Below, piece after piece: positions 19,380 through 43,755 of a DNA stretch of 64,000 nt (positions are counted from its first letter, which is position 1; every line of letters begins with the position of its first letter). Location of the stretch: positions 434,001 to 498,000 of the forward strand of contig NZ_JYFC01000002.1 of the NCBI RefSeq assembly GCF_000938265.1. The letters run 5' to 3'. Both the position numbers and the translations under genes were made by a program. The DNA comes from Agreia bicolorata (lineage in GTDB: Bacteria > Actinomycetota > Actinomycetes > Actinomycetales > Microbacteriaceae). The notes below the pieces were generated by a model. That model searched no databases. It was not told where the DNA came from and saw only the letters and a list, made by a program, of their open reading frames with translations.

Positions 19380-19453
19380 CCACGAGGACTCCTCGAGAGG
19401 ATCGAAGTGTCTCGATGCTCGAGGCGCGCAATTCAACGAGGAAGCGAGAACAC

Positions 19454-20311: not shown

Positions 20312-20320
20312 TGTCATACG

Positions 20321-21697
20321 TCAGCGGCGAGGGATCGACGAGGTATCGAACTTCTCGTTGCGGAATTCGCCCTGGTAGTAGGGGAATTGAGCGACGGTGG
20401 CGCGGATCTCGATCTTCGGGTGGTCGATGTCGCCCCAGAGCACGGTGACCTCGGTCCCCTCTGCGGCGTGCTCAACATCGAGCCAGGCGAGGGAGATCAT
20501 CCTGTTCTCGACGAAGGCCGGTGTGCGGCCGGTCGCAAGACCGATCTTCTCCCCGTTCAGGAGCACGTAATCGATGCGCATCCGGCCTACCGCGTAATCC
20601 GCGATCGCGATTACCGGATCGTTGCTCATCCGGTCGTAGACCACGGCGTCGGCCCCGCGGAATTGAGCTGAGTACGCCGCGCCGATGTCATCGGCGTTCC
20701 ATTCGAGCGTCACGACCTTTCGAGGGCGGTTCGACGCAATCGCCTGGAGGGCGGCCTTGCCGGGGAACTCGTGGTCGAAGTTGACGAGGTAGCCCCATCC
20801 AATGTCATACGGGGTGACCCAGGCGTTGCTGAGGTCGTCGCTGGCGCTGCCGTGGACGCCGATGTCGAAGGGGATGACCGACTCCATGTATGCCGCGAGT
20901 TCGGGCCCGCTGTCGCGGTAGGGCGGCAGGAAATGGATCACCTGGTTCGGGTAGCCGGCGACCGTGTGGTTGACCAGAGAGTAGTTCCAGAAGCCCTGCG
21001 GGCGACCTCCTACCTCCTCGACCGCGGCGCGAAGCTGCCGATATGCCTCCCGCGCAACAGTCGACGGACCATGCACCTCGTAGGCGAGGGCACCCGACAT
21101 GCCGAGGCGATGCACCACTGCCTCGGCACCCGCGATCGACACCGTCGCGTTCTGCGCGAACCGCAGGTGGTGCAGGTCGCTGCCCGTCACCTTCTCGAGG
21201 ATCTCGAGCGACTTGGGGCCGTCGATCTGGTAGAAGTACTCATCGAGCACCCACGTTCCCGTGACATCCAGAGTGCTCTTCGTCAAGAAGAAGTCGAGCA
21301 CGGGAGCCAACCAATAGGTGCGGAAATGGTTTTCGCCGAGCTTGAGCAGCACGCCGTCCGCGAGGATGTAGCCCTGCTCGTTGCAGATGACGACATGCTT
21401 CGACGCGCCGGTCTCGAGGGGACCGAAGTCCTTGTTGACGGCGACGGAGTTGAGGAACGCCGCGGCCTCTGGTCCGGTCACGTCGTAGACGGGGCTGTTG
21501 TTGAGCACGAACCCTATCGATGCGGTCTCGCGCGACGCGAGGAACTCATCACGGGTCGTCGAATATTCGGCTGGAACCCATCCGAAACCGATGTTCGTCT
21601 GAACATTGGACCCTTCGAATATGGGGCTGTCAGGCGCAAAAATGATCTGGCCGATCGGTGTACCGGGCGGGACAGAAACTTCATTGTTATCTGGCAT
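20321..21697 (-). CDS. Tetrahydrofolate-dependent aromatic O-demethylase homologue (LigM/DesA-like, GcvT fold), copy 1
   Basis: 458 residues, the length of LigM/DesA (about 460-470) rather than GcvT (about 365). The GcvT-type folate-binding fold is visible in DVTGPEAAAFLNSVAV, GENHFRTYWLAP, DGPKSLEILEKVTG, VHRLGMSGALAYEVHG and the C-terminal barrel. LigM moves the methyl of vanillate to THF, giving protocatechuate and 5-methyl-THF; DesA does so for syringate. The start has GAAGGAGA 8-10 nt upstream. It diverges from the beta-lactamase-like hydrolase, each with its own operator copy. A paralogue lies at 42.4 kb. The exact methoxy substrate is not readable. Confidence 0.82.
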   Translation of the reverse strand: MPDNNEVSVPPGTPIGQIIFAPDSPIFEGSNVQTNIGFGWVPAEYSTTRDEFLASRETASIGFVLNNSPVYDVTGPEAAAFLNSVAVNKDFGPLETGASKHVVICNEQGYILADGVLLKLGENHFRTYWLAPVLDFFLTKSTLDVTGTWVLDEYFYQIDGPKSLEILEKVTGSDLHHLRFAQNATVSIAGAEAVVHRLGMSGALAYEVHGPSTVAREAYRQLRAAVEEVGGRPQGFWNYSLVNHTVAGYPNQVIHFLPPYRDSGPELAAYMESVIPFDIGVHGSASDDLSNAWVTPYDIGWGYLVNFDHEFPGKAALQAIASNRPRKVVTLEWNADDIGAAYSAQFRGADAVVYDRMSNDPVIAIADYAVGRMRIDYVLLNGEKIGLATGRTPAFVENRMISLAWLDVEHAAEGTEVTVLWGDIDHPKIEIRATVAQFPYYQGEFRNEKFDTSSIPRR

Positions 21698-21757
21698 GAG
21701 GGCGAGTCTCCTTCGGCTCTTCATTGATTCATTCATCATCGGCACCGTGTCGACGGG

Positions 21758-21779
21758 CCGCATCCATGAATCCACCGGT
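21758..21779 (-). promoter_or_regulatory. Cluster operator copy 2 (ACCGGTG-N8-GATGCGG)
   Basis: It faces the O-demethylase copy 1 gene, 60 bp upstream of its ATG. It shares the inner GATTCAT with copy 3 on the opposite strand, so the divergent promoter region holds a mirrored pair. Confidence 0.65.
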
Positions 21780-21808
21780 ATTCAAGAGACGACGATCGCG
21801 CTCCCCCC

Positions 21809-21830
21809 ACTGGTGGATTCATCGATGCGA
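21809..21830 (+). promoter_or_regulatory. Cluster operator copy 3 (ACTGGTG-N8-GATGCGA)
   Basis: A perfect copy of the 22-bp element facing the hydrolase gene, about 72 bp upstream of GTG 21902. Confidence 0.7.
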
Positions 21831-21901
21831 CTGCGGCGGCTCGCATCGAAACTGAGGAGGCGCCGGCGCACACCGGAGTGAAGACCGAAGGAGTCCCGTC
21901 C

Positions 21902-23113
21902 GTGACCAGAGCATCCATACCCGATTCGGTGCACCTCGGTTCGGTCGATCTCGGAGGGAAGCTGCTGCCTCTGGGTGGCAGCTACGATCCAGCCTTCGCT
22001 CCGGTGGCGGAGGCATTCGTCGAGAATCACCTCGCGGGGGAGGAGATCGGCTCTGCCGTGTCGGTTGTCATCGACGGACGGGTCGTCGTCGACCTCTGGG
22101 GAGGCTGGACAGACGCGAGCCGTGCCCGCGAGTGGGATGCCGACACGATCGTGTGCATGATGTCGGTCGCGAAAGGCATCGCAGGAATCGCATTCGCCAT
22201 CTTGGTGGATCGAGGTCTCGTGGATCTCGACGCACCGGTCGCCGACTATTGGCCGGAATTCGCCCAGAACGGAAAAGCAGAGCTCCCGGTGCGCTATCTG
22301 CTCGACCATCGCGCGGGACTGCCGGTGCTGACGCCGAACAAGCTGTGGCCGGGGGCCATGTTCGACCGCGAGGCGATGGTCGACGCATTGGCCGCGCAGG
22401 CGCCGCTATGGACACCCGGGAGCACGTCTGCGTACCACGTGCACACACAGGGTTACCTGCTGAGCGAGATCACGCGTCGCGTCACGGGCAAACTCATGGG
22501 CGAGTTCCTTCGTGACGAGGTGACGGGCCCGCTCGGTGCCGACTACTCGATGGGGTTGGACGAGTCTCAATTCGCTCGAGTCGCAACGCTCACGCCGAAC
22601 CTGGAGTCACGGCTCCTGGCGTCCAAAGACCACGAGGATCCCGATTCGCTTCGGGCCTTGGCATTCGCCCAGAACCCGGACGGGCCTTGGCAGGGGATGT
22701 TGAACTCCCCTGAGTTCCGGCAACTCGACATGCCGAGTGCCAGCGGGCACGGCAACGCCAGGTCGGTCGCGAGAATATACGCGGCTGTCGCCCGCGGTGG
22801 CGAGCTCGACGGCGTGCGCATCCTTTCGCCGGGGGCGATCAGCCAGATGGCGACGGTGCAGCACGATCAGATCGAGCTTCTGCAAGAGCGGCACTACCGC
22901 CAAGGGCTCGGCGTTCTACTGAACTCTCCCGAGGCCGTCTACATGGGTCCCCATCCCGACGCGTTCGGTCATCACGGCATCGGGGGATCGATCGGATTCG
23001 CCGACCCGGGTGCCCGAATCGGGTTCGGCTACTCGGTGAACAAGATGCACGCCGTCGGAACGAACGGGCCTCGTGCCCGCCGGCTGATCGATGCGCTCTA
23101 CAGCATCCTCTGA
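21902..23113 (+). CDS. Serine hydrolase of the class C beta-lactamase/esterase (EstB-like) family
   Basis: 403 residues from GTG 21902, chosen because AAGGAG lies 8 nt upstream; GTG 21878 is possible. The SxxK motif is SVAK in MMSVAKGIAG, the tyrosine motif is YHVH in STSAYHVHTQGYLL, and GHHGIGGSIGF is the KTG/HxG equivalent. Such proteins are usually carboxylesterases rather than true beta-lactamases. Sharing a divergent operator pair with the O-demethylase suggests that it releases an aromatic acid or phenol from an ester before demethylation. That role is inferred. Confidence 0.82.
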   Translation: MTRASIPDSVHLGSVDLGGKLLPLGGSYDPAFAPVAEAFVENHLAGEEIGSAVSVVIDGRVVVDLWGGWTDASRAREWDADTIVCMMSVAKGIAGIAFAILVDRGLVDLDAPVADYWPEFAQNGKAELPVRYLLDHRAGLPVLTPNKLWPGAMFDREAMVDALAAQAPLWTPGSTSAYHVHTQGYLLSEITRRVTGKLMGEFLRDEVTGPLGADYSMGLDESQFARVATLTPNLESRLLASKDHEDPDSLRALAFAQNPDGPWQGMLNSPEFRQLDMPSASGHGNARSVARIYAAVARGGELDGVRILSPGAISQMATVQHDQIELLQERHYRQGLGVLLNSPEAVYMGPHPDAFGHHGIGGSIGFADPGARIGFGYSVNKMHAVGTNGPRARRLIDALYSIL

Positions 23114-23135
23114 CGCCTGAAAGACGCGCGCGAAT

Positions 23136-23993
23136 TCACCCCGAGGTCGGGGCGAGCTCCGCTGCCTTCAGAGTGTTTCTCAGCAGCTCCGCGATGGTCA
23201 TCGGCCCGACTCCGCCGGGGACAGGCGTGAGATAGCCGGCGTGACCGAGCAGCTCGTCGAACCGCACGTCGCCGATCAATCCTGCCGTCCCACGGTGGAT
23301 ACCGACATCGATCACCGCTGCGCCTTCGGCGACGTCATCGCGCCCGACCAGATGGGGAACTCCCGCGGCGACCACGAGAATGTCCGCCCGTCGCATGATG
23401 GCCTGCGCGTTCCGCGTTCGTGAGTGAACCACCGTGACGGTGGCGTTTCGGGCCTGGAGCATCTGCGCCACCGGTCGGCCCACCAACTCTGAGCGGCCGA
23501 CGACGACCGCTTCTCGACCTGCCAGATCGATGCCGGCAGCGTCCAGCAGAGTGATCACCCCGCTCGGTGTGCACGGCTGCAGCCCTGGTCTGCCTCGCGC
23601 CAGCAGTCCGACGCTGGTGGTCGTGAGCCCATCGACGTCTTTGAACCAGGGGATGCGCTCGATCGAGGAGCTCGAGTCGATTCCTTCGGGAAGAGGGAGC
23701 TGCAACAGGATGCCGGAGACGGCGGTGTCGGCGGCCAGCCGATCGATTTCGCCGTCGATGTCTGCCGCCGTCGCTTCAGCGTCGAGATGGCGGTGGAAGT
23801 CGGCGATCCCGGCACTCGCAGCCTGACGCCGCTTGTTCCGCACATAGACCTGTGAGGCAGGATCGTCCCCGACCAGCACGGTGGCCAGTCCCGGCCGAGT
23901 GCCGGTTCGGGATACGAATGCGTCGACGTCACGCGTGACGCTCTCTCGGACGCCGCGGGCGATAGCCGTCCCGTCGATGATGATCGTGTCCAT
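23136..23993 (-). CDS. folD: Bifunctional methylene-THF dehydrogenase / methenyl-THF cyclohydrolase
   Basis: 285 residues with all FolD signatures: YVRNKRRQ (catalytic Lys), LPLPEGI, KDVDG, PCTPSG, GRSELVGRP and the terminal PVPGGVGPMT. It interconverts 5,10-methylene-, methenyl- and 10-formyl-THF with NADP. ATG 23993 overlaps the upstream TGA by one base (GTG 23996 is possible). It is the last gene of a five-gene operon in the aromatic cluster, so it is probably a dedicated copy that processes the carbon taken from methoxy groups, with PurU finishing the job. Confidence 0.93.
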   Translation of the reverse strand: MDTIIIDGTAIARGVRESVTRDVDAFVSRTGTRPGLATVLVGDDPASQVYVRNKRRQAASAGIADFHRHLDAEATAADIDGEIDRLAADTAVSGILLQLPLPEGIDSSSSIERIPWFKDVDGLTTTSVGLLARGRPGLQPCTPSGVITLLDAAGIDLAGREAVVVGRSELVGRPVAQMLQARNATVTVVHSRTRNAQAIMRRADILVVAAGVPHLVGRDDVAEGAAVIDVGIHRGTAGLIGDVRFDELLGHAGYLTPVPGGVGPMTIAELLRNTLKAAELAPTSG

Positions 23994-24805
23994 CACAGGT
24001 TCCTTCTTCCGATGATCGTGAGGTTCGAGTTCACCCTCTCGCCCAGCTCGAGCTCCGCTTGATCGTGGCCGGTGACGACGATATCGACAGCCCCCGAGGC
24101 GAGAAGCTCCTTCACACGCCGATACCCGGCGATGGAATCCGGCAGATCGGTCAGAGCGACGAACGGCAGCTCGTCGCGCAGTTCCTCTCGGAAGTGCGCT
24201 ACATCCGACGTCAGCAGAACGGTTCCGACCGATGTGGCGACCGTCACCATCGACTGCCCGGGTGTATGGCCGCCGACCTCAAGCACGCGCACGCCAGGAG
24301 CGATCTCGGTGCTTCCCTCGAAAAGTCTGAGGCGTCGGCTCTGACGAAGGTGCGACAACTCTGCCAGTTCACTGGCCTCGGTGAAGTGAGCGATCTGCGG
24401 CGCACGCGAGATGCTGGTCTCCCAGAATTCGACTTCCGAGCGAGCCATCCAGATGGGCGACGTGGGAAAGAGATCGAGATTTCCGATGTGGTCCCAGTGC
24501 GCGTGGGTGACGATGAGAGGCCAGCCGGCTCCGGGCTCGACGCCAAGACTCCGATAGATGTCTGCGGGCGAGCTTATGACCGTGCGTCCTCGCCGCTGAG
24601 CCGCAGCGGCGGAGAAGCCCGTGTCCACGAAGATCGTCCGAGTCTCGTTGCGGATGACCCAGAGGAAGTAGTCGGTGACGATCGCGCTATCCGGCTCCCC
24701 GCTCAGCGAGTAGTTGAGAAACGCCTCGCTTCGCATCCCCACTCGGGTTCCATGCCGCGCGATGGCCACCTCGTACTCGTCATCCTTCACTACCGCGGTG
24801 TTCAT
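23993..24805 (-). CDS. Metallo-beta-lactamase-fold hydrolase (lactonase-like)
   Basis: 270 residues with the dinuclear zinc motif THAHWDHIGN (His101, His103, Asp105, His106), GGHTPGQSM and a later TSDVAHF and TGHDQ. The overall pattern matches the N-acyl-homoserine-lactonase-like branch, which opens lactones. In this operon a lactone or ester intermediate of ring catabolism is a more likely target than a signal molecule. It is coupled to folD by TGATG and lies 8 bp after the carboxymuconolactone-decarboxylase-like gene. Confidence 0.82.
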   Translation of the reverse strand: MNTAVVKDDEYEVAIARHGTRVGMRSEAFLNYSLSGEPDSAIVTDYFLWVIRNETRTIFVDTGFSAAAAQRRGRTVISSPADIYRSLGVEPGAGWPLIVTHAHWDHIGNLDLFPTSPIWMARSEVEFWETSISRAPQIAHFTEASELAELSHLRQSRRLRLFEGSTEIAPGVRVLEVGGHTPGQSMVTVATSVGTVLLTSDVAHFREELRDELPFVALTDLPDSIAGYRRVKELLASGAVDIVVTGHDQAELELGERVNSNLTIIGRRNL

Positions 24806-24813
24806 GCGGTTCG

Positions 24814-25221
24814 TCAGAGCGCCGAGCCTTCAACCACCGAAACGGTCGGTTCGAGCCCGTCGGCGCCGACGATCTCCCGCCACGCCTCGAAGCCGTCCTG
24901 AAAAGCCACGATGCCGGCTTCCGGAAGGGTAATCTCGATTGCCTCGAGCACCTCCTGAGCACTCGCACCCTCCGCGAGAGCGACGCGAATATGCGCTTGG
25001 ATCTGCGCGCGCGGCGCGCGAAGCACCGTGAGGCAGCAGATGAATATCAGCTCTTTCGTCTTGCGGTCGATGATCCGCTGATCGAGGTAGGCGGCGGAGA
25101 CGATCCCGTTGGCAGCTTTCAGAACCGGGAAATCGTGCTTCGCCATGACCTTGTGATAGCTGAGTACGTAGCCCCGCTTCGCGGCCATGTCGTCGATATA
25201 TTCCTGCGCTTCGTCAGTCAT
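24814..25221 (-). CDS. Carboxymuconolactone decarboxylase family protein
   Basis: 135 residues, a single CMD/AhpD-type helical domain with RKTKELIFICCLTVLRAP, AQIQAHIRVALAEGAS and EVLEAIEITLPEAG. Members decarboxylate lactones or act as peroxidase partners; the adjacent CC and His77 are near the usual active site. It is distinct from the true PcaC at 49.5 kb. It overlaps the preceding dehydrogenase gene by 8 bp. Its place among ring-catabolism genes suggests a decarboxylation or isomerisation step, but this is not proven. Confidence 0.82.
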   Translation of the reverse strand: MTDEAQEYIDDMAAKRGYVLSYHKVMAKHDFPVLKAANGIVSAAYLDQRIIDRKTKELIFICCLTVLRAPRAQIQAHIRVALAEGASAQEVLEAIEITLPEAGIVAFQDGFEAWREIVGADGLEPTVSVVEGSAL

Positions 25222-26137
25222 GATGATGATCCTTCTTCTGCTGTTGGTGAATCGGTCGGAATGAAACCTCGCCTGCGTTCTCGTACCAGGCGGCCACCTG
25301 GGTGTGGTCGAGCTCGCGTCCCTTGCCGAGTTCGTCGAACGCTGTGGTGGTCACGTCGGCGGCCGAATGCAGTACTGAAGCGGGAATGCCGGCCGCATCG
25401 ACCACGTCCAGCGCTATGCCGATGTCTTTCACCATGAGTGCCAGGGCGAACCCGGAATCGAAATGACCGGTCAGCACCTGCTGAGGGAACTTGACCTCGC
25501 TGGCTTGGCTGCGCCCGGTCGATGCGTTGACCACATCCACCATCACGGCGGGATCTATTCCCCAGGCGGTGGCGGCCACGAGCACTTCGGACATCGCGGC
25601 GATGTTCGTCGCGGAGAGCAGGTTGTTCAGCGCTTTCGCGGCGTGGCCGGCTCCTGACGGGCCAACGTGGATGAACGCGGCGGACATCGGATCGATGACC
25701 GCGCGCGCCCGGGCCACCGCCTCGACTGTGCCACCCGCCATCACCGCGAGTTCGCCGGTTTTTGCTTTGGCGATGCCGCCGGATACGGGTGCGTCGACGA
25801 AGTCGATACCTTGTCGCTTGGCGGCTTCCGCCAGTCGGCGGGTGCTCGCCGGTATCGATGAACTCATATCGATGACGAGCGAACCCGGTCGGAGACGTGT
25901 GAAGAGACCGTTCGAGCCGATGGTCACGGACTCGACGACGGCGCTGGTCGGCAGCATCAGGATGACGGTCTCGAGATCGATGGGAAGGGAGCGCAGGTCG
26001 TCGACGAGTTGGGCCCCCAGGGCGCTCGCGAGTTCGGCGGTCGCGGGTGCGGGGTCGTAGAGATAGAGGTCTGTCCGGCCGAGGCGGCTCGCCATGGGTG
26101 CGCCCATCCGGCCCAGCCCGAGGAACAGGAGGCTCAT
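25214..26137 (-). CDS. NAD(P)-dependent 3-hydroxyacid dehydrogenase (3-hydroxyisobutyrate dehydrogenase family)
   Basis: 307 residues: the Rossmann start FLGLGRMGAPMASRL, the substrate loop DAPVSGG (116-121), the catalytic Lys168 in GHAAKALNNLL, and the C-terminal helical domain. Enzymes of this family oxidise beta-hydroxyacids or reduce semialdehydes, for example tartronate semialdehyde. It starts with ATGA overlap after the FAD monooxygenase. The C-terminus ends with a His/Lys-rich tail. Its substrate in this cluster is unclear. Confidence 0.85.
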   Translation of the reverse strand: MSLLFLGLGRMGAPMASRLGRTDLYLYDPAPATAELASALGAQLVDDLRSLPIDLETVILMLPTSAVVESVTIGSNGLFTRLRPGSLVIDMSSSIPASTRRLAEAAKRQGIDFVDAPVSGGIAKAKTGELAVMAGGTVEAVARARAVIDPMSAAFIHVGPSGAGHAAKALNNLLSATNIAAMSEVLVAATAWGIDPAVMVDVVNASTGRSQASEVKFPQQVLTGHFDSGFALALMVKDIGIALDVVDAAGIPASVLHSAADVTTTAFDELGKGRELDHTQVAAWYENAGEVSFRPIHQQQKKDHHHD

Positions 26138-27333
26138 GCCAGCGCCTCGTGGTGACGCGGAAGGTCGCTGCGCAGGACGGTCATACCCGTGAGCCTGTTG
26201 AGCGTCGCCGCTGGGTCGCTGAAGTCGCCAGCCGCACGCACCATGCTCTCCAGGGCTGCGGTGTCGGATGTGTCGTACACCAGCCCCTTGATGCGGGAGG
26301 CCATGGGCGAGGCGAACTCGCGAAAAAGGCTAAGCCTCGTTTCCGCCCAGTGGTCGAGAAGGCTCTCATCCGCGGTCCCTCGGAGTGCAGCAGACAGCGG
26401 CTCGATCAGGGCGAGGAGGTCATAGATTCCTGAGGTCAGCCCGAATCCGCCGGTGGGATTCGTGGCGTGCGCGGCATCGCCGAGGAGAAGCACGCGCCCG
26501 GTGCGCATCGTGTCGACCATTCGCTGGTGCATCCGGTAGGGCGTGAACGAATCGACGTCGAATGGCACATCGCCGAAGCCGAGTGCGGCCAGTCGACCCG
26601 GCAGCCGGTCGAGCACGCTGTCCTCGGGCAACTCCGCCGACTCGCTCCACGTCCACCGCCAGAGGCCGGTGTCGTTGATCTGCGCGATGACGGCGCCATG
26701 CTCGGGATCGAAGATCATGTTCGCTTTCGCCAGGCCGCCGACGACATCGAAGGGATACTGGATGTTGGTCGCGACAAATCGCTGAGGCCAGGTCGTGCCG
26801 TCGAAGCTCAGCCCGAGCGAGCGGCGGACTGCGCTTCGTGCTCCGTCGGCGCCGAGAACCCAACGGGTCGCCCAGGTCTCCAGACCCTCCGGGCCATCCA
26901 CATCGAGAACCGCGTGATCGGCATCGTTGCGCACGGCCGTAACGGTTGCTCCGTTCAGGATGCGAGCATTCGGGTAGCGGGCGAGATGCTGGAGCGCAAT
27001 TTCAACGACCTCGTGCTGGCCCAGATGCACATTGTAGGCGTAGGGCGAGATCGCCGCGACCGGATCGAGCGGAATATCGGCTCGGAGTCCCGTCGACAGA
27101 ACGCGCTGCTGAAAGCTCGTGTTTCGCAGTCCGGCGGCATCCATGTCGCCCAGCACGCCGAGCCGATCGAGTCCGTCGAGGACGTGCCAGTAGTACACCA
27201 TGGCGCGCGGAGAACGGACGATCAAGGGTTCTGCCTCGAAGACGACCACGTCGTGCCCACGTTGAGCAAGCCCGAGGGCTGCGAGGGCACCGACAGGGCC
27301 GGCTCCGACGATGGCTACTTCTGCGGAGTTCAT
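26134..27333 (-). CDS. FAD-dependent aromatic monooxygenase (PheA/TfdB/MhpA-like)
   Basis: 399 residues from ATG 27333 (ATG 27345 is also possible; neither has a clear Shine-Dalgarno). Class A flavoprotein hydroxylase motifs are present: GAGPVG, LGADGARSAVR (DG motif) and GDAAHATNPTGGFGL (GD motif). These enzymes use NAD(P)H and O2 to hydroxylate phenols, some with loss of a carboxyl group. As first gene of the operon with FolD, it is a good candidate for making a methoxyhydroquinone or hydroxyquinol-type intermediate. An operator copy ends 30 bp upstream of the start. Confidence 0.87.
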   Translation of the reverse strand: MNSAEVAIVGAGPVGALAALGLAQRGHDVVVFEAEPLIVRSPRAMVYYWHVLDGLDRLGVLGDMDAAGLRNTSFQQRVLSTGLRADIPLDPVAAISPYAYNVHLGQHEVVEIALQHLARYPNARILNGATVTAVRNDADHAVLDVDGPEGLETWATRWVLGADGARSAVRRSLGLSFDGTTWPQRFVATNIQYPFDVVGGLAKANMIFDPEHGAVIAQINDTGLWRWTWSESAELPEDSVLDRLPGRLAALGFGDVPFDVDSFTPYRMHQRMVDTMRTGRVLLLGDAAHATNPTGGFGLTSGIYDLLALIEPLSAALRGTADESLLDHWAETRLSLFREFASPMASRIKGLVYDTSDTAALESMVRAAGDFSDPAATLNRLTGMTVLRSDLPRHHEALA

Positions 27334-27363
27334 ACGAACGATCATCGACGCCGAGGATCTGGA

Positions 27364-27385
27364 TCGCATCAGTGGGGCCACCGGT
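27364..27385 (-). promoter_or_regulatory. Cluster operator copy 4 (ACCGGTG-N8-GATGCGA)
   Basis: Located in the divergent region between the FAD monooxygenase and the first LuxR-type regulator, facing the monooxygenase only 30 bp from its ATG. It is also 58 bp from the regulator start, so it could serve autoregulation. Confidence 0.65.
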
Positions 27386-27442
27386 GACGCACGAGGTGCG
27401 GTAGCGTGACAAGGCACGACGAGCACGCAAAGGAGCGTCAGC

Positions 27443-32485: not shown

Positions 32486-32493
32486 GGATGCGA
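32472..32493 (+). promoter_or_regulatory. Cluster operator copy 5 (ACAAGTG-N8-GATGCGA)
   Basis: It faces the hydroxyquinol dioxygenase gene, about 125 bp upstream of its ATG, and overlaps the start codon of the divergent LuxR-type regulator 2. Its inner eight bases AGGTCATG are identical to those of copy 8. Confidence 0.6.
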
Positions 32494-32617
32494 GCCGTGC
32501 CGTTGGCGCGTCACCATGGTGCAATCGGCCGAGCCTCCACATGGAGCGGGGTTCGGACGATGAGATTCTTTCACACTCCTTCACGAGCACCGTCGCTCCG
32601 AGCCCGAAAGCAGATCG

Positions 32618-33505: not shown

Positions 33506-33554
33506 CGGCCGTTCGGAGCAACGCCGTTGAGGTCACGGCGGTTGCCGTCACCGC

Positions 33555-35476: not shown

Positions 35477-35527
35477 CTTCGTCGCCTTTCGTAGCTCGAC
35501 CAGAACTCTCCTCGCCCCGGCACCTGA

Positions 35528-35549
35528 TCGCATCGGTGCCGCCACCAGT
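35528..35549 (-). promoter_or_regulatory. Cluster operator copy 6 (ACTGGTG-N8-GATGCGA)
   Basis: A perfect pair of end boxes facing the SDR-maleylacetate reductase operon. Its inner part GCGGCACC makes the dyad CACCGAT / ATCGGTG especially clear. Copy 7 lies only 12 bp away on the opposite strand. Confidence 0.7.
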
Positions 35550-35561
35550 GGTGCGACGCAC

Positions 35562-35583
35562 CCTAGGGAGCTCATGGATGCGA
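35562..35583 (+). promoter_or_regulatory. Cluster operator copy 7, weaker (CCTAGGG-N8-GATGCGA)
   Basis: It faces the flavin oxidase gene, 58 bp upstream of its ATG. The right box is perfect and the left box diverges at three positions; the inner TCATG matches copies 5 and 8. Confidence 0.5.
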
Positions 35584-35640
35584 CACCGCCCGGACTCGCG
35601 TGAACCTGTTGAGCAGACCTGATTCGAAGGAGAACAGCGA

Positions 35641-37164: not shown

Positions 37165-38036
37165 CGATCTCAAAGACGGAGATTCCGTACATTCTGGCGG
37201 TCGCCTGCGAAGACAGGCCCGGAATCGTGGCCCGTATCACCGGAGTGATCTTCGAGGAAGGGGGAAACATCGCAGAGTCGCAGCAATTCGACGATTCTCT
37301 GTCGGGGCGCTTCTTCTCGCGAATCGCGTTCACCCCGTCTGGCCCTGGCTTCGACGAGGCCAGGCTCCGTGCGCGGTTGCAGGCACTGATGGCGGAGTTC
37401 GACGCCGATTACCGTTTCGAGCGCGCAGATGTGCGCAGACGCGTGGTGATCCTTGCTTCCAAGCAGGACCACTGCCTCGCCGACCTTCTTTATCGTGCGC
37501 GTACCGGGGATTTGGCGATGGACGTGGTCGCCGTCGTGTCGAACCACCCGATCTCGGTCTACGGGTCGCTCAACTTCGGCTCCGTCCCCTTCCACCACTT
37601 CCCGGTGCTCGACGGTGACAAACGCGCACAAGAACGCCGTATCTCAGCCCTGATCGAAACCCTGAATGCCGACCTCGTGATTCTCGCCCGGTACATGCAG
37701 ATTCTCAGTGATGAGTTCTCGGCCGAGCTGAACGGCCGGTGCATCAACATCCACCATTCCTTCCTGCCCGGATTCAAGGGGGCGCGTCCGTACCACCAGG
37801 CGTTCGAGAGGGGAGTCAAGCTGATCGGAGCCACCGCGCACTACGTCACCGGTGATCTCGACGAGGGTCCGATCATCGTGCAGGATGTCGAGGCGGTCAG
37901 CCATCGCGATCTGCCAGATACTCTCGTGCGCAAGGGCCGTGACATCGAACGCCGGGTCCTCGCCCGCGCGGTGAGGTACCACATCGAAGACCGGGTGTTC
38001 GTGAATGGGCGCACATCCGTCGTCTTCCCCGATTGA
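37161..38036 (+). CDS. purU: Formyltetrahydrofolate deformylase
   Basis: 291 residues: an N-terminal ACT domain (ILAVACEDRPGIVARITGVIF) and a C-terminal formyl-THF hydrolase domain with the active-site segments INIHHSFLPGFKGARPYHQA and GATAHYVTGDLDEGPII. It splits 10-formyl-THF into formate and THF. ATGA overlaps the VAO-like gene, a very unusual partner for purU. This ties folate recycling to aromatic oxidation: FolD and PurU together would turn folate-bound methoxy carbon into formate and regenerate free THF. Confidence 0.94.
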   Translation: MTISKTEIPYILAVACEDRPGIVARITGVIFEEGGNIAESQQFDDSLSGRFFSRIAFTPSGPGFDEARLRARLQALMAEFDADYRFERADVRRRVVILASKQDHCLADLLYRARTGDLAMDVVAVVSNHPISVYGSLNFGSVPFHHFPVLDGDKRAQERRISALIETLNADLVILARYMQILSDEFSAELNGRCINIHHSFLPGFKGARPYHQAFERGVKLIGATAHYVTGDLDEGPIIVQDVEAVSHRDLPDTLVRKGRDIERRVLARAVRYHIEDRVFVNGRTSVVFPD

Positions 38037-38049
38037 CCGGCTCGTCGAC

Positions 38050-39021
38050 ATGAACATGACACGACCCCACCTGAGCGGCGAGATCCGAGAGCGATCGCGT
38101 CGCGGCGGGTTCTGGATACCGGGACAGAAGGTCACCGGCGAAGCCGGGACCTTGCTTCGAGGTTCGATGTGGGTGGAGTGGGAGTCACCGGTCGATCCGC
38201 TTGCCGACCCCGTAGTCTTCGTCCACGGCGGAGGAGGCCAGGGGACGGACTGGCTCATGACGCCCGACGGTCGGCCGGGCTGGGCCGCGGAATTCGTGGC
38301 GGCCGGGCATCCGGTCTATGTCGTCGACCGGCCCGGGCACGGGCGCTCTCGCAGCCACCCCGATCTGGACGGTCCGCTGACCGGCTCGATGCCGTTGGAG
38401 GCGGTAGCCAGAGTGTTCGCCTCGTCCGTCGGCCAGGGCGACGAAGCGGCTCGCGACGGTATCCGCGACCTGGTCCTCCACCAGCTCGGCGCCTCGGCCG
38501 GCCCGCGACACCGCGACCTCGCCGAGGGCAACCGGCGCGACGCGGACCGTCTCGTCGAGCTGCTGGAGATGATCGGTCCGGCGATCATCGTCAGTCATTC
38601 ACTCGGTGCCCTCGGCAGCTGGGTCGCCGCGTCCCGACGACCCCGGCTGGTGAGCGCCCTCGTCGCCGTGGAACCACCCGGTCCACCGTTCTCCACGATT
38701 CCCGGTGTCGGGCGACTCGATTCCGGTCTCGCTGCAATCGACCCGGCCGACGTCGACACCACCGTGGACGACGCCTGGGCGCGTTCGCTGAGCGGAGTAC
38801 CGATCGTCGTGGTGACGGCACCCGAATCGCCGTTCCGGGACGGAGCCTCGCGACTCGCCGGCTATCTCGTCGCGCTCGGACTCGATGCGGAGGAGCAGGC
38901 TCTCGAGCAGCACGGCCTCCAGGGGAACGGACACGGGCTCATCCTGGAATCCAACTCGTCGAGCACGGCCGCCGTCGTGCTCGAGTGGATCGCCACTCGC
39001 CGCGGCCATGCTTCGTTATGA
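38050..39021 (+). CDS. Alpha/beta hydrolase
   Basis: 323 residues from ATG 38050 (ATG 38056 is possible). It has an oxyanion-type HGGGG (59-63), VDRPGHGRS, the nucleophile elbow SHSLGALG with Ser184, and a terminal NGHGL that supplies the His. It follows purU by 13 bp and overlaps pabB by 14 bp. Members hydrolyse esters, lactones or C-C bonds; no closer family is recognised. Position within the operon suggests an aromatic ester or lactone substrate. Confidence 0.8.
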   Translation: MNMTRPHLSGEIRERSRRGGFWIPGQKVTGEAGTLLRGSMWVEWESPVDPLADPVVFVHGGGGQGTDWLMTPDGRPGWAAEFVAAGHPVYVVDRPGHGRSRSHPDLDGPLTGSMPLEAVARVFASSVGQGDEAARDGIRDLVLHQLGASAGPRHRDLAEGNRRDADRLVELLEMIGPAIIVSHSLGALGSWVAASRRPRLVSALVAVEPPGPPFSTIPGVGRLDSGLAAIDPADVDTTVDDAWARSLSGVPIVVVTAPESPFRDGASRLAGYLVALGLDAEEQALEQHGLQGNGHGLILESNSSSTAAVVLEWIATRRGHASL

Positions 39022-40327
39022 CGTGCCCGGTGACTTCGACCTGGAGCGCGCCTATGCCTGTCTCATCGGCGGGAGGACCGACTCGGTCTGGCTAGACAGC
39101 GGTGACGGCGCGCGAAGCTATTTCGCCATCGGTGAGCCGGTGGATCTCGCGGGAGGCGTTCTTTCCGCCCTTGACCGGGAGCTTCCTGCCCGGAGGGTAT
39201 CCCCGCCCTCCGATGTCATCCACGAACTCGAGTTCACGCTCGGTTTGATCGGGTGGCTCGGGTACGGGGTGCTCGGGGAGACGTTGGGCATGGAGACTAT
39301 TCCGGATCTCCGCCGTACTGATGCCGCGCTGCTGAAAGTTGTTCGGGCGGTGATGATCGACACCCAGGGAGCTCACCTCCTGGCGATAGGCGACGAATGG
39401 CTGGCTGAGAACGCGCAATGGCGGCACGACGTACTTCGCCAGCTCGCCCTCATCGAGGGAGTCGGCCCACTCGCGCCGCCTCCACCTCCGCGTCCGACCA
39501 CGACGCGATGGGCGGACTCGCCAGCGGAATACCGAGGAAAGATCGCCGCGTGCTTCGAGTCGATCCACGCCGGAGACGCCTTCCAGCTCTGCTTGACCAC
39601 CACTATCGAGGTCGCTGGATCCTTCGACGTCTTCGATCTCTACCGCCGTGTCAGGAAGACGAGCCCGACTCACCACGGAGCGCTCCTGCGCATCGGGGGC
39701 GTCAGCGTCGTCAGCGCGTCGCCGGAGCGGTTTCTGGAGATCGACCCGGCCGGCCTCATCACGACCCGGCCTATCAAGGGGACACGTCCCCGTGCGGCGG
39801 ACAGCGCAGCAGACGACGCGAGCCGCGAAGAGCTGCGGCACAGCGTCAAGGAGCAGGCGGAGAACCTGATGATTGTGGACCTGATGCGAAACGACCTCTC
39901 GCAGGTCTGTGAGGTCGGAACCGTCGGAGTACCCGGCTTGTTCGAGATCGAGAGCTATGCCCAGGTGCATCAACTTGTGAGCACCGTCACCGGTCGGCTC
40001 ACCCCGACGGCGACGGTGGCCGACGTGCTTCGCGCCTGCTTTCCGGCCGGCTCGATGACCGGAGCCCCGAAACGCCGGGCGATCAGCCTGTTGCAGTCAT
40101 TGGAGATGCGGGCGCGCGGAGTGTATGCCGGGGCGTTCGGATACTTCGGCTTCGACGGATCGGTCGACCTGGCGATGACGATTCGAACCATCGTGGTCGA
40201 CTCTCACGGCGCGACTGTCGGCGCAGGCGGGGGTATCACTGCCCTGTCGAATCCCGACGCCGAAGTCGAAGAAGTGGCAGTAAAGGCGGCACCTCTGCTC
40301 CGGGCGCTCGGCTGTATCGGCTGGTGA
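39008..40327 (+). CDS. pabB: Chorismate-binding enzyme, aminodeoxychorismate synthase component I (PabB-like)
   Basis: 439 residues with the anthranilate-synthase/PabB core: FQLCLTTTIEV, SASPERFLEID, RPIKGTRPRA, LMIVDLMRNDLSQVC, PAGSMTGAPKRRA and GVYAGAFGYFG. It makes 4-amino-4-deoxychorismate, the precursor of p-aminobenzoate and folate. No PabA amidotransferase or PabC lyase gene is adjacent, so it must borrow them or use ammonia. Coupled behind purU, it would boost folate supply for the THF-dependent demethylases. Anthranilate synthase is the main alternative, less likely with no trp neighbours. Confidence 0.85.
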   Translation: MLRYDVPGDFDLERAYACLIGGRTDSVWLDSGDGARSYFAIGEPVDLAGGVLSALDRELPARRVSPPSDVIHELEFTLGLIGWLGYGVLGETLGMETIPDLRRTDAALLKVVRAVMIDTQGAHLLAIGDEWLAENAQWRHDVLRQLALIEGVGPLAPPPPPRPTTTRWADSPAEYRGKIAACFESIHAGDAFQLCLTTTIEVAGSFDVFDLYRRVRKTSPTHHGALLRIGGVSVVSASPERFLEIDPAGLITTRPIKGTRPRAADSAADDASREELRHSVKEQAENLMIVDLMRNDLSQVCEVGTVGVPGLFEIESYAQVHQLVSTVTGRLTPTATVADVLRACFPAGSMTGAPKRRAISLLQSLEMRARGVYAGAFGYFGFDGSVDLAMTIRTIVVDSHGATVGAGGGITALSNPDAEVEEVAVKAAPLLRALGCIGW

Positions 40328-40374
40328 TCGTGGTTGTGACAGCGAAGGAACCCATCGAAGAATGAAGGAACGAC

Positions 40375-41250
40375 GTGCTCATAGAATCAATTCCGGGAAT
40401 TAGGACCACTGTCGGGGAGAGCCCCATCTGGGACTCGTCATCCAGGTCGCTCTGGTTCGTGGATATCCTCGAACCCGCAGTGCTCCGCCTCGATGAGCAC
40501 GGCGACCTGAGCCGATGGGCGACACCTCGTCAGGTCGGCGCCGTAGCGCTCGCGGACTCCGGCACAGTGGCGGTCGCTCTCGACAATGCCTTCACGACGC
40601 TCCATCCCTCCAGCGGTGACTTCGCGCCGCCGACGGCGGCCGGAGTTGCGGCAAACGCCGCGATCAGCGAAGGGAAGGTCGATAGGGACGGCCGCTTCGT
40701 AGCCGTCTCCGGCGGACGCGATTTCAGCTCAGCTGTCGGGGCGATCCACCGCTGGGAGCCTGACGGCAGCGTCACCGAACTCGACGACGGGTTCATCCTC
40801 GGCAACGGCCTCTGTTGGAGCGTGGATGGCTCGATCATGTACGTCGCCGACAGCAAGCGCGGCGTCATCTACGCATACGAGTACGGCACGTCACTGGGCG
40901 AACGGCGCGTCTTCGCCCGATTCGACGACGACGGCGCCTTTCCCGACGGGGCCACCGTCGACGAGGACGATCATGTCTGGACGATCCTTCACGGCTCGAA
41001 GTGGCTGATCCGGATGGCTCCCGATGGCCGAGAGGTGCTTCGGATCGACATGCCCAGCCCGAACATCACGAGTCTCGCGTTCGGCGGCCACGCACTCGAT
41101 GAGATCTACGTCACGTCATTGGACCCGGCGAGCATCCCCGATGCCGCCGCGTCAGCTCGGGACCGAACAGAGTCCGGGCTGTTGTACCGGATCTCGGGGT
41201 CGGGTTTCGTCGGCGTACCCGAGACGCGCGTGAGGCGAGACAGCTACTAA
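40375..41250 (+). CDS. SMP-30/gluconolactonase family lactonase
   Basis: 291 residues, a six-bladed beta-propeller of the SMP-30 type: GESPIWDSSSRSLWFVDI at the start supplies the metal-binding Glu, with GNGLCWSVDGSIMYVADS and FPDGATVDEDDHVW further on. Such calcium or zinc lactonases open sugar or aromatic-derived lactones. GTG 40375 follows GAAGGAACGAC. It is 47 bp behind pabB and probably in the same unit. A lactone of the ring-cleavage route is the plausible substrate. Confidence 0.87.
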   Translation: MLIESIPGIRTTVGESPIWDSSSRSLWFVDILEPAVLRLDEHGDLSRWATPRQVGAVALADSGTVAVALDNAFTTLHPSSGDFAPPTAAGVAANAAISEGKVDRDGRFVAVSGGRDFSSAVGAIHRWEPDGSVTELDDGFILGNGLCWSVDGSIMYVADSKRGVIYAYEYGTSLGERRVFARFDDDGAFPDGATVDEDDHVWTILHGSKWLIRMAPDGREVLRIDMPSPNITSLAFGGHALDEIYVTSLDPASIPDAAASARDRTESGLLYRISGSGFVGVPETRVRRDSY

Positions 41251-41264
41251 AAGGCGCAAGCGCT

Positions 41265-41286
41265 ACTAGTGAGGTCATGGATGCCG
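41265..41286 (+). promoter_or_regulatory. Cluster operator copy 8 (ACTAGTG-N8-GATGCCG)
   Basis: In the 140-bp gap before the NmrA-like gene, about 105 bp upstream of its ATG. The inner AGGTCATG is identical to copy 5, and the two share a longer AGTGAGGTCATGGATGC string. Confidence 0.6.
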
Positions 41287-41390
41287 TGCAATGTCGGTGC
41301 TGTGAGACTTCGAGCACGCCGAGCGCGGTAAAGGTTAGTTGCACCGCGGTCTGCGTCACAGTCCAGTTCAGCGAAGAACGGAAGTAGAAC

Positions 41391-42317
41391 ATGAAGACAA
41401 TGGTGTCTGGAGCGTCCGGAGGATTCGGGCGCGAGGCAGTCGAGCTCCTGCTGGAACGTGTCGCTCCTCAGGACCTCATCCTCGTGACGAGGAACCCAGC
41501 GAGTCTGGCGGATCTTGCCGCGCGCGGCGCAGAGGTGCGCCAGGGCGACTTCGACCGGCCCGAGGAACTCGATACCGCATTCGCCGGCGCGGATCGCATG
41601 CTGCTCATCAGCACCCGCGACGTGGGACGGCGAGCGGAACAGCATGCCATCGCGATCGAGGCGGCGACACGGGCCGGCGTGCAGCACATCGTCTACACCT
41701 CGAGTGACGGATCCGAACCCGGCAACCCCGCCATCGTCGCACCGGACCATCTGCGCACCGAGATCCTGCTGGCCGAGAGTGGCGTCGACTACACCGTCAT
41801 GCGTGACAGTCTGTACGCCGAGGCGGCCGCGTTCATGATGGTGCCTGTCGGCCTGGCCACCGGTCAGCTACGCATGTCTACGGGCGATGGCCGAGTCGGC
41901 TTCATCTCCCGCTCGGAATGCGTGGCCGCTGCTGTGGAGGTGCTCACGAGCGACGGCCATTCCGGGCGTACCTATCGGATCGCCAATGAGCAGAACTGGT
42001 CGATCCGAGAGCTGGCGTCGATGGCCGCCGAGATCTTCGATCGGCCCATCGAGTACGTCGAGCTCACGTCGGAGGAGCGGGACTCCGAACTTGCGGCCGC
42101 GGGAGTTCCCGAGCACTACGAAGTGGGACTCGAGACGGAGACGTACGGAGCCTCGGCTCGAGACGACCTGGTGACATACGAAGCCGGTATCCGTGAGCAC
42201 TACTTCGGCACGACCTCGCGCGACGTGCGCACCCTGACCGGTCGTGGGCCGACACCGTTGCACGAGGTGCTCGTCCGAGGCCGCGACGCCGTCCTCGAGC
42301 GTTCCCGCCTGTTCTGA
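41391..42317 (+). CDS. NmrA/NAD(P)-binding atypical SDR
   Basis: 308 residues. The N-terminal loop GASGGFG is the NAD(P)-binding motif of atypical SDRs, followed by VYTSSDGSEPG and the substrate-side VDYTVMRDSLYAE. The C-terminal part (RTYRIANEQNWSIRELASMAAEIF) fits NmrA/QOR2-type quinone reductases and redox sensors. It may reduce a quinone formed from (methoxy)hydroquinones, protecting the pathway, or act as a redox regulator. It is 46 bp upstream of O-demethylase copy 2 and probably co-transcribed with it. Confidence 0.83.
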   Translation: MKTMVSGASGGFGREAVELLLERVAPQDLILVTRNPASLADLAARGAEVRQGDFDRPEELDTAFAGADRMLLISTRDVGRRAEQHAIAIEAATRAGVQHIVYTSSDGSEPGNPAIVAPDHLRTEILLAESGVDYTVMRDSLYAEAAAFMMVPVGLATGQLRMSTGDGRVGFISRSECVAAAVEVLTSDGHSGRTYRIANEQNWSIRELASMAAEIFDRPIEYVELTSEERDSELAAAGVPEHYEVGLETETYGASARDDLVTYEAGIREHYFGTTSRDVRTLTGRGPTPLHEVLVRGRDAVLERSRLF

Positions 42318-42363
42318 ACGACCTCAGATCCGCCAGATCCTCAATCATCCGAAGGAGAAGCAC

Positions 42364-43755
42364 GTGTCCGACACATCCAGCACCGCCAGTCAGCCGGAGT
42401 GGGGGTCAGGTACGCCCGCAACCGCTCTGATCTTCGCACCCGGCAGCCCGGTCTTCGAGGGAGCGACGGCATTGGCGCCGTTCGGCCCCTTCCTCGTGCC
42501 GGCGCAGTACTCCTCACCGCGGGAGGAGTTCCTCGCCGCCCGGACAACGGCCTGGCTTGGCACCTTCCTCAATACGAGCCCAGTCTTCGACGTGACCGGC
42601 CCCGACGCCGTGGCGTTCCTCAACAGTGTGGCGGTGAATAGAGACTTCGGAAAACTCCCCGAGGGCGGATCACGTCACATGATCATCTGCAACGATGACG
42701 GCCAGATGCTTGCAGATGGACTCTGCGTGAAGCTGGGTGAGAACCACTTCCGCACATACTGGCTAGCACCCGTCCTCGACTTTCATCTGCGTCGGAGTGC
42801 GCTCGATGTGCACGGGTCGTACGTCCTCGACGAGTACTTCTTCCAGGTCGACGGACCCAAATCGCTCGAGATCATGGAGAAGGTCACAGGGGCCGACCTC
42901 CACGGCCTGCGCTTCGGGCGGAACACCCGAGTGGCTCTGGGCGGAGGTGCCGCCGTCGTGCATCGCCTCGGCATGTCGGGATCACTGGCCTATGAAGTCC
43001 ACGGGCACTCCACCTACGCGCTCGCCGCCTACGAGGCGCTGCGTGAAGCGGTCGAGGCGGCGGGAGGCAAGCCGCAGGGATTCCTCAATTACGCCCTCGG
43101 AAACCACACCATCGGGGGCTACCCGAACCAATTCCAGCATTTCCTCTACCCTTACGCGGAAAGCGGCTCGGAGCTTGCTGCCTTCATCGCTCAGGTGCCG
43201 CACCTCGACCTGGGACTCGCCGGCAGCGCCGCCGATAGCAGGGCCAACGTCTACCTGACCCCTTACGACGTCGGTTGGGGAAACCTCGTGAACTTCGATC
43301 ATGACTTTCCCGGGAAAACTGCCCTGCAACGCATCGCGCAGGACCCGCCCCGGCAGGCGGTCACGCTCGAATGGAATGCCGACGACGTTGCGGCCGCGTT
43401 CTCGACGCAGCTCAGGGGCCGGGCAGCTACCGCGGCCGACCTGGTGACAACTCCCGGCTTCACGCTCGAGGAGTTCGCGAGCCTCAAGATGCGGGTCGAC
43501 TACGTTCTCGCGGACGGCGGGAAGATCGGGGTCACTGCGGGCCGCACGATCGATTATCGGGAGAACCGGATGGTGTCGCTCGCGTTCATCGAGCGGGAGT
43601 TCGCCGATGAAGGATCACCCGTCGTGGTGCTCTGGGGTGATACCGAGGAATCGCGGGTCGAGATACGCGCCACGGTCGCGCCGATGCCCTACTTTCGAGG
43701 CGACGATCGCAACGAGGTATTCGACACGACCCGGATACCCGTCAGGGAGCCGTGA
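42364..43755 (+). CDS. Tetrahydrofolate-dependent aromatic O-demethylase homologue (LigM/DesA-like), copy 2
   Basis: 463 residues from GTG 42364, preceded by GAAGGAGAAGCAC. It is a clear paralogue of the protein at 20.3 kb: both share GENHFRTYWLAPVLDF, DGPKSLEI, VHRLGMSG and the NFDH-FPGK segment. The GcvT fold and LigM/DesA length are kept. The copies differ in the N-terminal 30 residues and in insertions around residue 375. They could demethylate different methoxyphenols, or the first and second methoxy groups of a syringyl compound. No metF gene is nearby, so the chromosomal MetF would be needed if the product is 5-methyl-THF. Confidence 0.82.
   Translation: MSDTSSTASQPEWGSGTPATALIFAPGSPVFEGATALAPFGPFLVPAQYSSPREEFLAARTTAWLGTFLNTSPVFDVTGPDAVAFLNSVAVNRDFGKLPEGGSRHMIICNDDGQMLADGLCVKLGENHFRTYWLAPVLDFHLRRSALDVHGSYVLDEYFFQVDGPKSLEIMEKVTGADLHGLRFGRNTRVALGGGAAVVHRLGMSGSLAYEVHGHSTYALAAYEALREAVEAAGGKPQGFLNYALGNHTIGGYPNQFQHFLYPYAESGSELAAFIAQVPHLDLGLAGSAADSRANVYLTPYDVGWGNLVNFDHDFPGKTALQRIAQDPPRQAVTLEWNADDVAAAFSTQLRGRAATAADLVTTPGFTLEEFASLKMRVDYVLADGGKIGVTAGRTIDYRENRMVSLAFIEREFADEGSPVVVLWGDTEESRVEIRATVAPMPYFRGDDRNEVFDTTRIPVREP

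What the first reader, a model, noticed from the sequence alone, without database searches (positions are those of the whole stretch)
20321..43755. Folate-coupled O-demethylation module: two LigM/DesA-like proteins with dedicated folD, purU and pabB
Two GcvT-fold O-demethylase homologues bracket a cluster that also encodes FolD, PurU and PabB, none of which belongs in an ordinary aromatic operon. LigM-type enzymes pass methoxy carbon to THF. FolD and PurU would oxidise it to 10-formyl-THF and release formate plus free THF, and PabB would raise folate supply. This resembles the sphingomonad LigM system but with a different folate set (no metF or formate-THF ligase here), in an actinobacterium. 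It may be a new form of THF-dependent demethylation.
Basis: partly seen in the sequence, partly recalled or inferred. Interest (0 to 1): 0.85.

Follow-up and report, generated by a model that had tools for sequence, protein, structure and literature searches.

The report
Folate-linked aromatic ether-cleaving gene cluster
A bacterium carries a gene cluster that probably strips a one-carbon group off plant aromatics, burns it to formate through folate and feeds the ring into central metabolism; it resembles known systems in a combination that the literature searches made here did not turn up.

Summary
The genes are real: two GcvT-fold proteins (58-60% identical) with extra copies of folD, purU and pabB, no metF nearby and no formate-THF ligase. 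The LigM/DesA label fails at family level. In 99 rows, GcvT-fold homologues split on one branch: a LigM side (Q at the position of SesA H82; LigM H60 kept) and a side with most of the published SesA/BrdA fingerprint. Both window proteins are on the second. A MetF-like gene lies within 10 kb of a LigM-side GcvT in 24 of 25 genomes examined and beside 10 of 11 plasmid loci, against 0 of 3 and 0 of 7 for the other side. Best reading: a SesA/BrdA-like system moving a methylene (less likely methyl) group from a phenylpropanoid or lignan-derived aromatic to THF; FolD and PurU make formate plus THF; the ring goes through hydroxyquinol to 3-oxoadipate. New variant of a known kind.

The parts
20321..21775 (-). 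gcvT1: stand-alone GcvT-fold THF-dependent C1 transferase, on the side of the family with the SesA/BrdA fingerprint
42244..43755 (+). gcvT2: paralogue of gcvT1 (58-60% identity); likely start about 42364
23136..23996 (-). folD, second genomic copy; overlaps the next gene of the minus-strand run by 4 bases
37161..38036 (+). purU, second genomic copy; start overlaps the end of the VAO-type gene by 4 bases
38885..40327 (+). pabB-type chorismate-binding enzyme (likely start 39008), one of four chorismate-binding enzymes in the genome
35641..37164 (+). vanillyl-alcohol oxidase / eugenol (4-allylsyringol) oxidase-type flavoprotein
   Evidence: 4e-104 to 4-allyl syringol oxidase, 1e-98 to eugenol oxidase; 83% identical in Agreia
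32618..33505 (+). hydroxyquinol 1,2-dioxygenase
   Evidence: 1tmx, 1.2e-106; 69% identical in Agreia
33555..34607 (-). maleylacetate reductase
   Evidence: named maleylacetate reductases 3w5s 3e-69 and 3hl0 4e-67; two unnamed iron alcohol dehydrogenases score higher
26134..27798 (-). FAD hydroxylase of HspB/PnpA type (likely start about 27339): by analogy, ring hydroxylation with loss of a para side group
   Evidence: HspB 8e-74, PnpA 2e-70
34604..35575 (-). SDR (domain begins at residue 34-40), 78% identical in Agreia
19298..20245 (+). second SDR beside gcvT1 (real start downstream of 19298)
25214..26137 (-). 3-hydroxyisobutyrate-dehydrogenase-like, same minus-strand run
24814..25221 (-). carboxymuconolactone-decarboxylase-domain protein
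23993..24805 (-). metallo-beta-lactamase-fold, lactonase-like hydrolase
21878..23113 (+). serine esterase / beta-lactamase-fold (LipL-like) hydrolase
38005..39021 (+). alpha/beta hydrolase between purU and pabB
   Evidence: also after purU in Agreia
40375..41250 (+). SMP-30/gluconolactonase-like
41391..42317 (+). NmrA-like NAD(P)-binding protein
27443..29992 (+). large LuxR-type regulator
29969..32842 (-). large LuxR-type regulator (true start probably downstream; the ORF's first part overlaps the dioxygenase gene)
43806..45035 (-). pobA, 4-hydroxybenzoate 3-monooxygenase, border to the pca cluster

Best explanation
A catabolic island for a plant phenylpropanoid or lignan-derived aromatic. GcvT1 and GcvT2 belong to the side of the GcvT-fold family that carries the SesA/BrdA fingerprint and most likely open a methylenedioxy ring, passing the methylene carbon to THF as 5,10-CH2-THF. 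FolD oxidises this to 10-CHO-THF and PurU releases formate and THF; PabB supplies p-aminobenzoate for a larger folate pool. Because the carbon enters as methylene, no MetF is needed. The VAO-type flavoprotein and SDRs would oxidise the benzylic side-chain carbon of the freed phenol, the HspB/PnpA-type hydroxylase would remove the side chain by para-hydroxylation, and hydroxyquinol would go through hydroxyquinol 1,2-dioxygenase and maleylacetate reductase to 3-oxoadipate, which the adjacent pca genes can finish. Shown by sequence: the genes, the family side, the absence of a linked MetF, the hydroxyquinol pair. Inferred: methylene rather than methyl, the substrate, the order of steps. I hold the wider statement (THF-dependent C1 removal from an aromatic, ending in hydroxyquinol) at about 0.8 and the methylene version at about 0.5.
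For: Family side: of 99 rows, 34 have H and 63 have Q at the SesA H82 position (2 neither). All 34 H rows have H at the H225 equivalent (same or next residue), R179 and E189; 28 of 34 have Y221. All 63 Q rows keep LigM H60 and none has H at 225; no H row has H60 (6 of 34 are gapped there). The labels lie on opposite sides of one branch. SesA residues and the published SesA/BrdA versus LigM/DesA/DmdA split are from PMC5547118 (parts 1-2 of 4 read). SesA gives 5,10-CH2-THF (PMC9560768 passage). Partner genes: MTHFR-like ORF within 10 kb of a LigM-side GcvT in 24 of 25 genomes versus 0 of 3 H-type genomes (G000, G363, G577; Fisher p 0.0012), and in 10 of 11 LigM-side versus 0 of 7 H-type plasmid loci (p 0.00025). 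Some H-type loci carry folD and/or purU without metF: Agreia (purU), Sphingobium EP60837 (folD), R. opacus G13 (folD-purU-gcvT), R. erythropolis R138 (folD), Rhizobium lusitanum (purU). Hydroxyquinol dioxygenase and maleylacetate reductase sit beside H-type GcvT in the window, Agreia, Sphingobium EP60837 and R138. Gene overlaps: VAO/purU, folD/MBL, CMD/HIBDH, HIBDH/FMO.
Against: SesA and BrdA sequences could not be fetched, so they are not in the tree; the link rests on published residue numbers. In the window proteins SesA R100 is K and the H225 equivalent is one residue further on. BrdA enzymes do not act on sesamin (PMC5547118), so the clan does not fix the substrate. No folD or purU was seen near the GcvT in the Rhodococcoides, Deinococcus, Psychrobacter and G363 H-type loci nor in the anaerobes' loci. 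The H-type side holds acetogens and gut anaerobes, where the C1 chemistry is unknown and a housekeeping MetF could serve. A divergent MTHFR-domain ORF elsewhere in the genome could still oxidise CH3-THF. The VAO and hydroxyquinol genes suit a methoxyphenol equally well, and a maleylacetate reductase or a hydroxyquinol-dioxygenase-like gene also lies near two LigM-side GcvT genes. R. opacus G13's GcvT is H-type by residues but scores slightly better with LigM (223 bits) than with the window protein (207). In A. tumefaciens L100 an H-type GcvT lies near a metF that adjoins a LigM-type GcvT; it was left out of the count. H-type genome G405 was not searched for MTHFR.
Confidence: 0.5

Rival explanations
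1. O-demethylase module: GcvT1/2 transfer a methyl group from a carboxylate-free methoxyphenol (4-alkylguaiacol or methoxyhydroquinone) to THF; the housekeeping MTHFR oxidises CH3-THF, then FolD and PurU finish. Methoxyhydroquinone demethylation would give hydroxyquinol directly.
For: Closest solved fold is LigM (Foldseek 4e-34); the column of LigM's catalytic Tyr (Y247, recalled) is Y265 in gcvT1; loss of LigM H60 and R122 (substrate-site residues, recalled) suits a substrate without carboxylate; VAO/eugenol-oxidase-type enzymes act on guaiacyl compounds (recalled; match); a divergent MTHFR-domain ORF exists.
Against: A MetF-like partner is beside H-type GcvT in 0 of 3 genomes and 0 of 7 plasmid loci, against 24 of 25 and 10 of 11 on the LigM side; both proteins carry most of the SesA/BrdA fingerprint.
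Confidence: 0.35
2. The two GcvT paralogues act on a non-aromatic or N-methyl donor, and the aromatic genes are neighbours by chance.
For: The GcvT fold also serves sarcosine, dimethylglycine and DMSP enzymes; mabO-folD-purU on pAO1 is an N-demethylation operon (PMC6214936 passages).
Against: No flavin amine-oxidase domain is fused and none was annotated among the cluster genes scanned; homologous GcvT genes sit with hydroxyquinol genes in three other records; the best sequence match among solved structures is an aryl O-demethylase.
Confidence: 0.08
3. Ordinary LigM/DesA-type vanillate or syringate module, with unlinked metF.
For: Best NCBIfam profiles are DesA and LigM.
Against: Far below cut-off; outside the LigM branch with 99/96 support; H60 and R122 lost, Q82 replaced by H.
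Confidence: 0.05

Closest known systems
[quoted passage not shown] no. 22
   Same: THF-dependent GcvT-type enzyme; residues H82, D95, R179, E189, Y221 and (shifted by one) H225 matched by position in the window proteins; product 5,10-CH2-THF would fit folD+purU without metF
   Different: Sequence not available here; R100 is K in the window; substrate of the window proteins unknown; no hydroxyquinol genes beside sesA are known to me
BrdA, berberine demethylenases (Rhodococcus, Arthrobacter, Sphingobium, Burkholderia)
   Same: Same demethylenase clan as SesA in the published tree; SesA H82, R100, R179 and H225 conserved in them (PMC5547118)
   Different: Substrate is an alkaloid; no sequence in hand; folate neighbours not described in the parts read
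LigM / DesA and the LigM-side actinobacterial and plasmid homologues found here
   Same: Same fold and THF chemistry; purU, folD and folate-synthesis genes often beside them
   Different: Other side of the family; MetF-like partner; keep vanillate-site H60, mostly R122
pAO1 mabO-folD-purU operon of Paenarthrobacter nicotinovorans
   Same: A CH2-THF producer with folD and purU in one operon (PMC6214936 passages)
   Different: Flavin-dependent N-demethylation of methylaminobutyrate, not aryl ether cleavage
Rhodococcus opacus DSM 44186 plasmid cluster pabB-gcvT-metF-purU-folD
   Same: pabB, purU and folD beside a GcvT-fold gene in an actinobacterium
   Different: LigM side, with metF, and extradiol ring-cleavage genes

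Membership tests
LigM/DesA O-demethylases | Score above the NCBIfam equivalog cut-off | tested here: not met
   168 of 800 and 143 of 580 bits (gcvT1); 151 and 129 (gcvT2)
LigM/DesA O-demethylases | On the LigM side of the tree | tested here: not met
   99/96 branch separates 30 LigM-side rows from 29 rows with the window; same split with 63 and 34 rows. DesA itself was not in the trees
LigM/DesA O-demethylases | LigM H60 and R122 (vanillate-site residues, recalled) | tested here: not met
   N/T and L in the window proteins; H60 in 63 of 63 LigM-side rows and 0 of 34 others; R122 in 42 of 63 and 2 of 34
LigM/DesA O-demethylases | Linked MetF-like gene | tested here: not met
   24 of 25 LigM-side genomes, 10 of 11 plasmid loci; none in the window
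LigM/DesA O-demethylases | 5-CH3-THF from a methoxyphenol | not testable with these tools
   needs an assay
SesA/BrdA demethylenases | SesA residues R81, H82, R100, R179, H225; D95, E189, Y221 | tested here: inconclusive
   K (gcvT1) or R (gcvT2) at 81; H82, D95, R179, E189, Y221 kept; K at 100; H225 one residue later
SesA/BrdA demethylenases | Clusters with SesA and BrdA in a tree | not tested
   sequences not in hand; the SesA paper is not held
SesA/BrdA demethylenases | THF-dependent opening of a methylenedioxy ring | not testable with these tools
   needs an assay
Hydroxyquinol pathway | Hydroxyquinol 1,2-dioxygenase plus maleylacetate reductase genes | tested here: met
FolD-PurU C1 oxidation branch | Dedicated extra folD and purU copies | tested here: met
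Dimethylglycine/sarcosine oxidases | Fused or partner flavin amine oxidase | tested here: not met
   Pfam finds only GcvT domains in both proteins; no amine oxidase among the cluster genes scanned

The most novel reading that the evidence does not exclude
GcvT-fold aryl-ether enzymes fall into two clans that differ in the oxidation state of the carbon given to THF, readable from one residue (Q or H at SesA 82) and from the presence or absence of a linked MetF. The window would then be a methylenedioxyphenyl (lignan or sesamol-type) degradation island that ends in hydroxyquinol, a route that the searches made here did not turn up.
Probability: 0.35. Interest if true: 0.7.

Novelty: new variant of a known kind. 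Interest (0 to 1): 0.5.

Why it matters
If right, the metF rule would let one predict from sequence whether a GcvT-like gene, now labelled 'aminomethyltransferase' or LigM in many records, takes methyl or methylene groups. It would also give a testable aerobic route for methylenedioxy plant compounds and enzymes for lignan and lignin chemistry. It corrects an easy annotation error: the nearest profile is LigM, but the protein lies on another branch.

Tried and rejected
LigM/DesA membership: rejected on profile scores, tree, residues and partner genes. Sarcosine/dimethylglycine type: rejected, no flavin domain or partner seen. A missed metF in the window: MetF proteins taken from LigM-side loci gave no tblastn hit in the window, and the only MTHFR-domain hit in the genome is on another contig. 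Some ORFs first taken as genes (21782-22309 -, 35572-36753 -, 19433-20317 -) lie opposite better ORFs and were dropped. The second structure aligner was not available. An active-site superposition with LigM was not done. Rows dropped before counts: genome G177 (LigM side) was not passed, so 25 of 26 LigM-side genomes were examined; H-type genome G405 was not searched for MTHFR; L100's H-type GcvT was left out because a LigM-type GcvT with metF lies beside it; fragments L014_11637 and L018 were left out of both trees and the duplicate L046 row of the 99-row tree, while L067/L068 (neither Q nor H) were kept ungrouped. Plasmid loci were read in stretches of 4 to 12 kb on each side; the L048 and L106 records have no annotation there and rest on tblastn, L050 on annotation alone. 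The one LigM-side plasmid miss is the archaeon Halobellus (L109). The GcvT survey starts from best hits to the window protein, so it is no random sample and the p values are only a guide. Literature: 'methylenedioxy + tetrahydrofolate + GcvT' gave 1 paper; 'hydroxyquinol + maleylacetate reductase + aminomethyltransferase' 0; two of 'sesamol, hydroxyquinol, demethylenation' 21 papers, 10 listed; 'methoxyhydroquinone + hydroxyquinol + tetrahydrofolate' 2, seen as listing only. PMC9404685 and PMC7914952 were searched for passages, nothing used.

Full report
Observation. The window (63-70% G+C by 4-kb block; part of a 715 kb contig of a 3.9 Mb genome) holds two GcvT-fold genes that bracket folD, purU and a pabB-type gene. 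They are the only two such genes found in the genome at E<=1e-3 and 58-60% identical. The folate genes are additional copies: the second folD and purU lie about 210 and 190 kb away on the same contig, and three more chorismate-binding enzymes elsewhere. No formate-THF ligase was found.

Between the GcvT genes are a hydroxyquinol 1,2-dioxygenase (32618-33505 +; 1.2e-106 to 1tmx), a maleylacetate reductase (33555-34607 -), a VAO/eugenol-oxidase-type flavoprotein (35641-37164 +) and an HspB/PnpA-type hydroxylase (26134 to about 27339 -). pobA, a PcaR-type regulator and pcaH follow, then further pca-type genes by position and family. Four-base overlaps tie the VAO-type gene to purU, and folD ends a closely packed minus-strand run that begins with the hydroxylase.

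Relatives. Agreia sp. VKM Ac-1783 has the block dioxygenase, maleylacetate reductase, SDR, VAO, purU, hydrolase, GcvT (76%), then pobA and pca genes; no folD was seen in the 21 kb held. Rhodococcoides trifolii has a GcvT (76%), SDR, a short ORF like the start of a maleylacetate reductase, and the hydroxylase, without folD or purU in the stretch. Sphingobium EP60837 plasmid pEP1 has maleylacetate reductase, dioxygenase, folD, folB and GcvT (40%); Rhodococcus erythropolis R138's plasmid has dioxygenase, maleylacetate reductase, folD and GcvT (30%). Other relatives at 40-53% are mostly in acetogens and gut anaerobes, some in tandem, with no folD or purU in the stretches held. Of 396 sampled genomes of the same order, 28 have a match at E<=1e-20: the window's own, one other H-type genome (G363) and 26 with LigM-side members only. 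In a phylum sample of 396 genomes, searched at E<=1e-40, H-type rows came from the own genome, G577 and G405.

Family side. In a 60-row tree the LigM side (30 rows with LigM itself) and the window side (29 rows) are separated by a 99/96 branch. A 99-row quick tree gives the same split for rows with Q (63) and rows with H (34) at the position of SesA H82, with 2 rows in neither. All H rows have H at the H225 equivalent and none has LigM H60; all Q rows keep H60 and none has H at 225; R122 is kept in 42 of 63 Q rows and 2 of 34 H rows. The SesA residue numbers and the published split of demethylenases (SesA, BrdA) from demethylases (LigM, DesA, DmdA) come from PMC5547118 (parts 1 and 2 of 4 read). 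The predicted structure (mean pLDDT 84.8) has LigM as nearest solved fold; it shows the fold, not the substrate.

Partner genes. With Pfam MTHFR in 28 genomes, an MTHFR-like ORF lies within 10 kb of a LigM-side GcvT in 24 of 25 genomes (the miss, G014, has its GcvT at a contig end) and near an H-type GcvT in 0 of 3; G363 has no MTHFR hit at all and G577's hits are on other contigs. In plasmid loci metF lies beside the GcvT in 10 of 11 LigM-side and 0 of 7 H-type cases (p 0.00025). Of the 13 records or genomes behind further H-type loci, 8 have MTHFR hits somewhere, none near the GcvT as judged from positions and contig lengths. Many of these are anaerobes in which a housekeeping MetF would do, so the weight lies on the aerobes. 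PurU is within 10 kb in 16 of 25 and FolD in 3 of 25 LigM-side genomes, so purU and folD alone are not special; their presence without metF is.

Mechanism. SesA transfers a methylene group to THF giving 5,10-CH2-THF (PMC9560768 passage), and the pAO1 mabO-folD-purU operon shows that a CH2-THF producer can be paired with these two enzymes (PMC6214936 passages). LigM makes CH3-THF, which needs MetF before FolD (recalled). The gene set here therefore fits a methylene donor better. The hydroxyquinol pair, the VAO-type enzyme and the HspB/PnpA-type hydroxylase suggest side-chain oxidation, side-chain removal by para-hydroxylation and ring cleavage of a trihydroxybenzene; sesamol-type or lignan-derived methylenedioxyphenyl compounds, or methoxyhydroquinone in the rival reading, would both reach hydroxyquinol. 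This part is inference; a maleylacetate reductase and a dioxygenase of this type also occur near single LigM-side genes. PabB as folate supply is supported by pabB and folP near a LigM-side module in R. opacus and folB in others.

Verdict. Real cluster, mis-filed at family level, more informative than described. New variant of known THF-dependent demethylenase/demethylase systems; moderate interest.

Noticed in passing
L012 1474-11257 (Atopobiaceae), also L006, L011, L014: Tandem arrays of two to four H-type GcvT genes in gut and other anaerobes or MAGs, and single ones in acetogens, some beside LysR- or methyltransferase-like ORFs (read by eye); possible corrinoid-independent aryl ether cleavage in anaerobes.
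   Followed up: partly
L049 7980-10380 and L050 1219-3482: An H-type GcvT gene sits with a TetR regulator and an SMR efflux gene on both a Deinococcus and a small Psychrobacter plasmid: a recurring trio with unknown substrate.
   Followed up: no
L003 1399-2475 (own genome, contig C16): The genome's only MTHFR hit is a divergent 359-aa frame with an MTHFR C-terminal-type motif (DUF5981); Agreia's only MTHFR hit is likewise one weak match in a 359-aa frame. A canonical MetF was not found in either.
   Followed up: partly
window 19162-19251: tRNA-Ser (CGA) lies at the edge of the cluster, a possible integration site for an island.
   Followed up: no
L101 (Rhodococcus opacus DSM 44186 plasmid): Folate-gene island: pabB, folP, a Mur-ligase-family gene, purU, folD and metF around a LigM-side GcvT, with extradiol dioxygenase genes and a second LigM-side GcvT.
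   Followed up: partly
L086 8175-9083 and similar: A short (about 290-330 aa frame) MTHFR-like family scoring only about 24-42 bits to Pfam MTHFR is the usual partner of LigM-side GcvT genes in the sampled order.
   Followed up: partly
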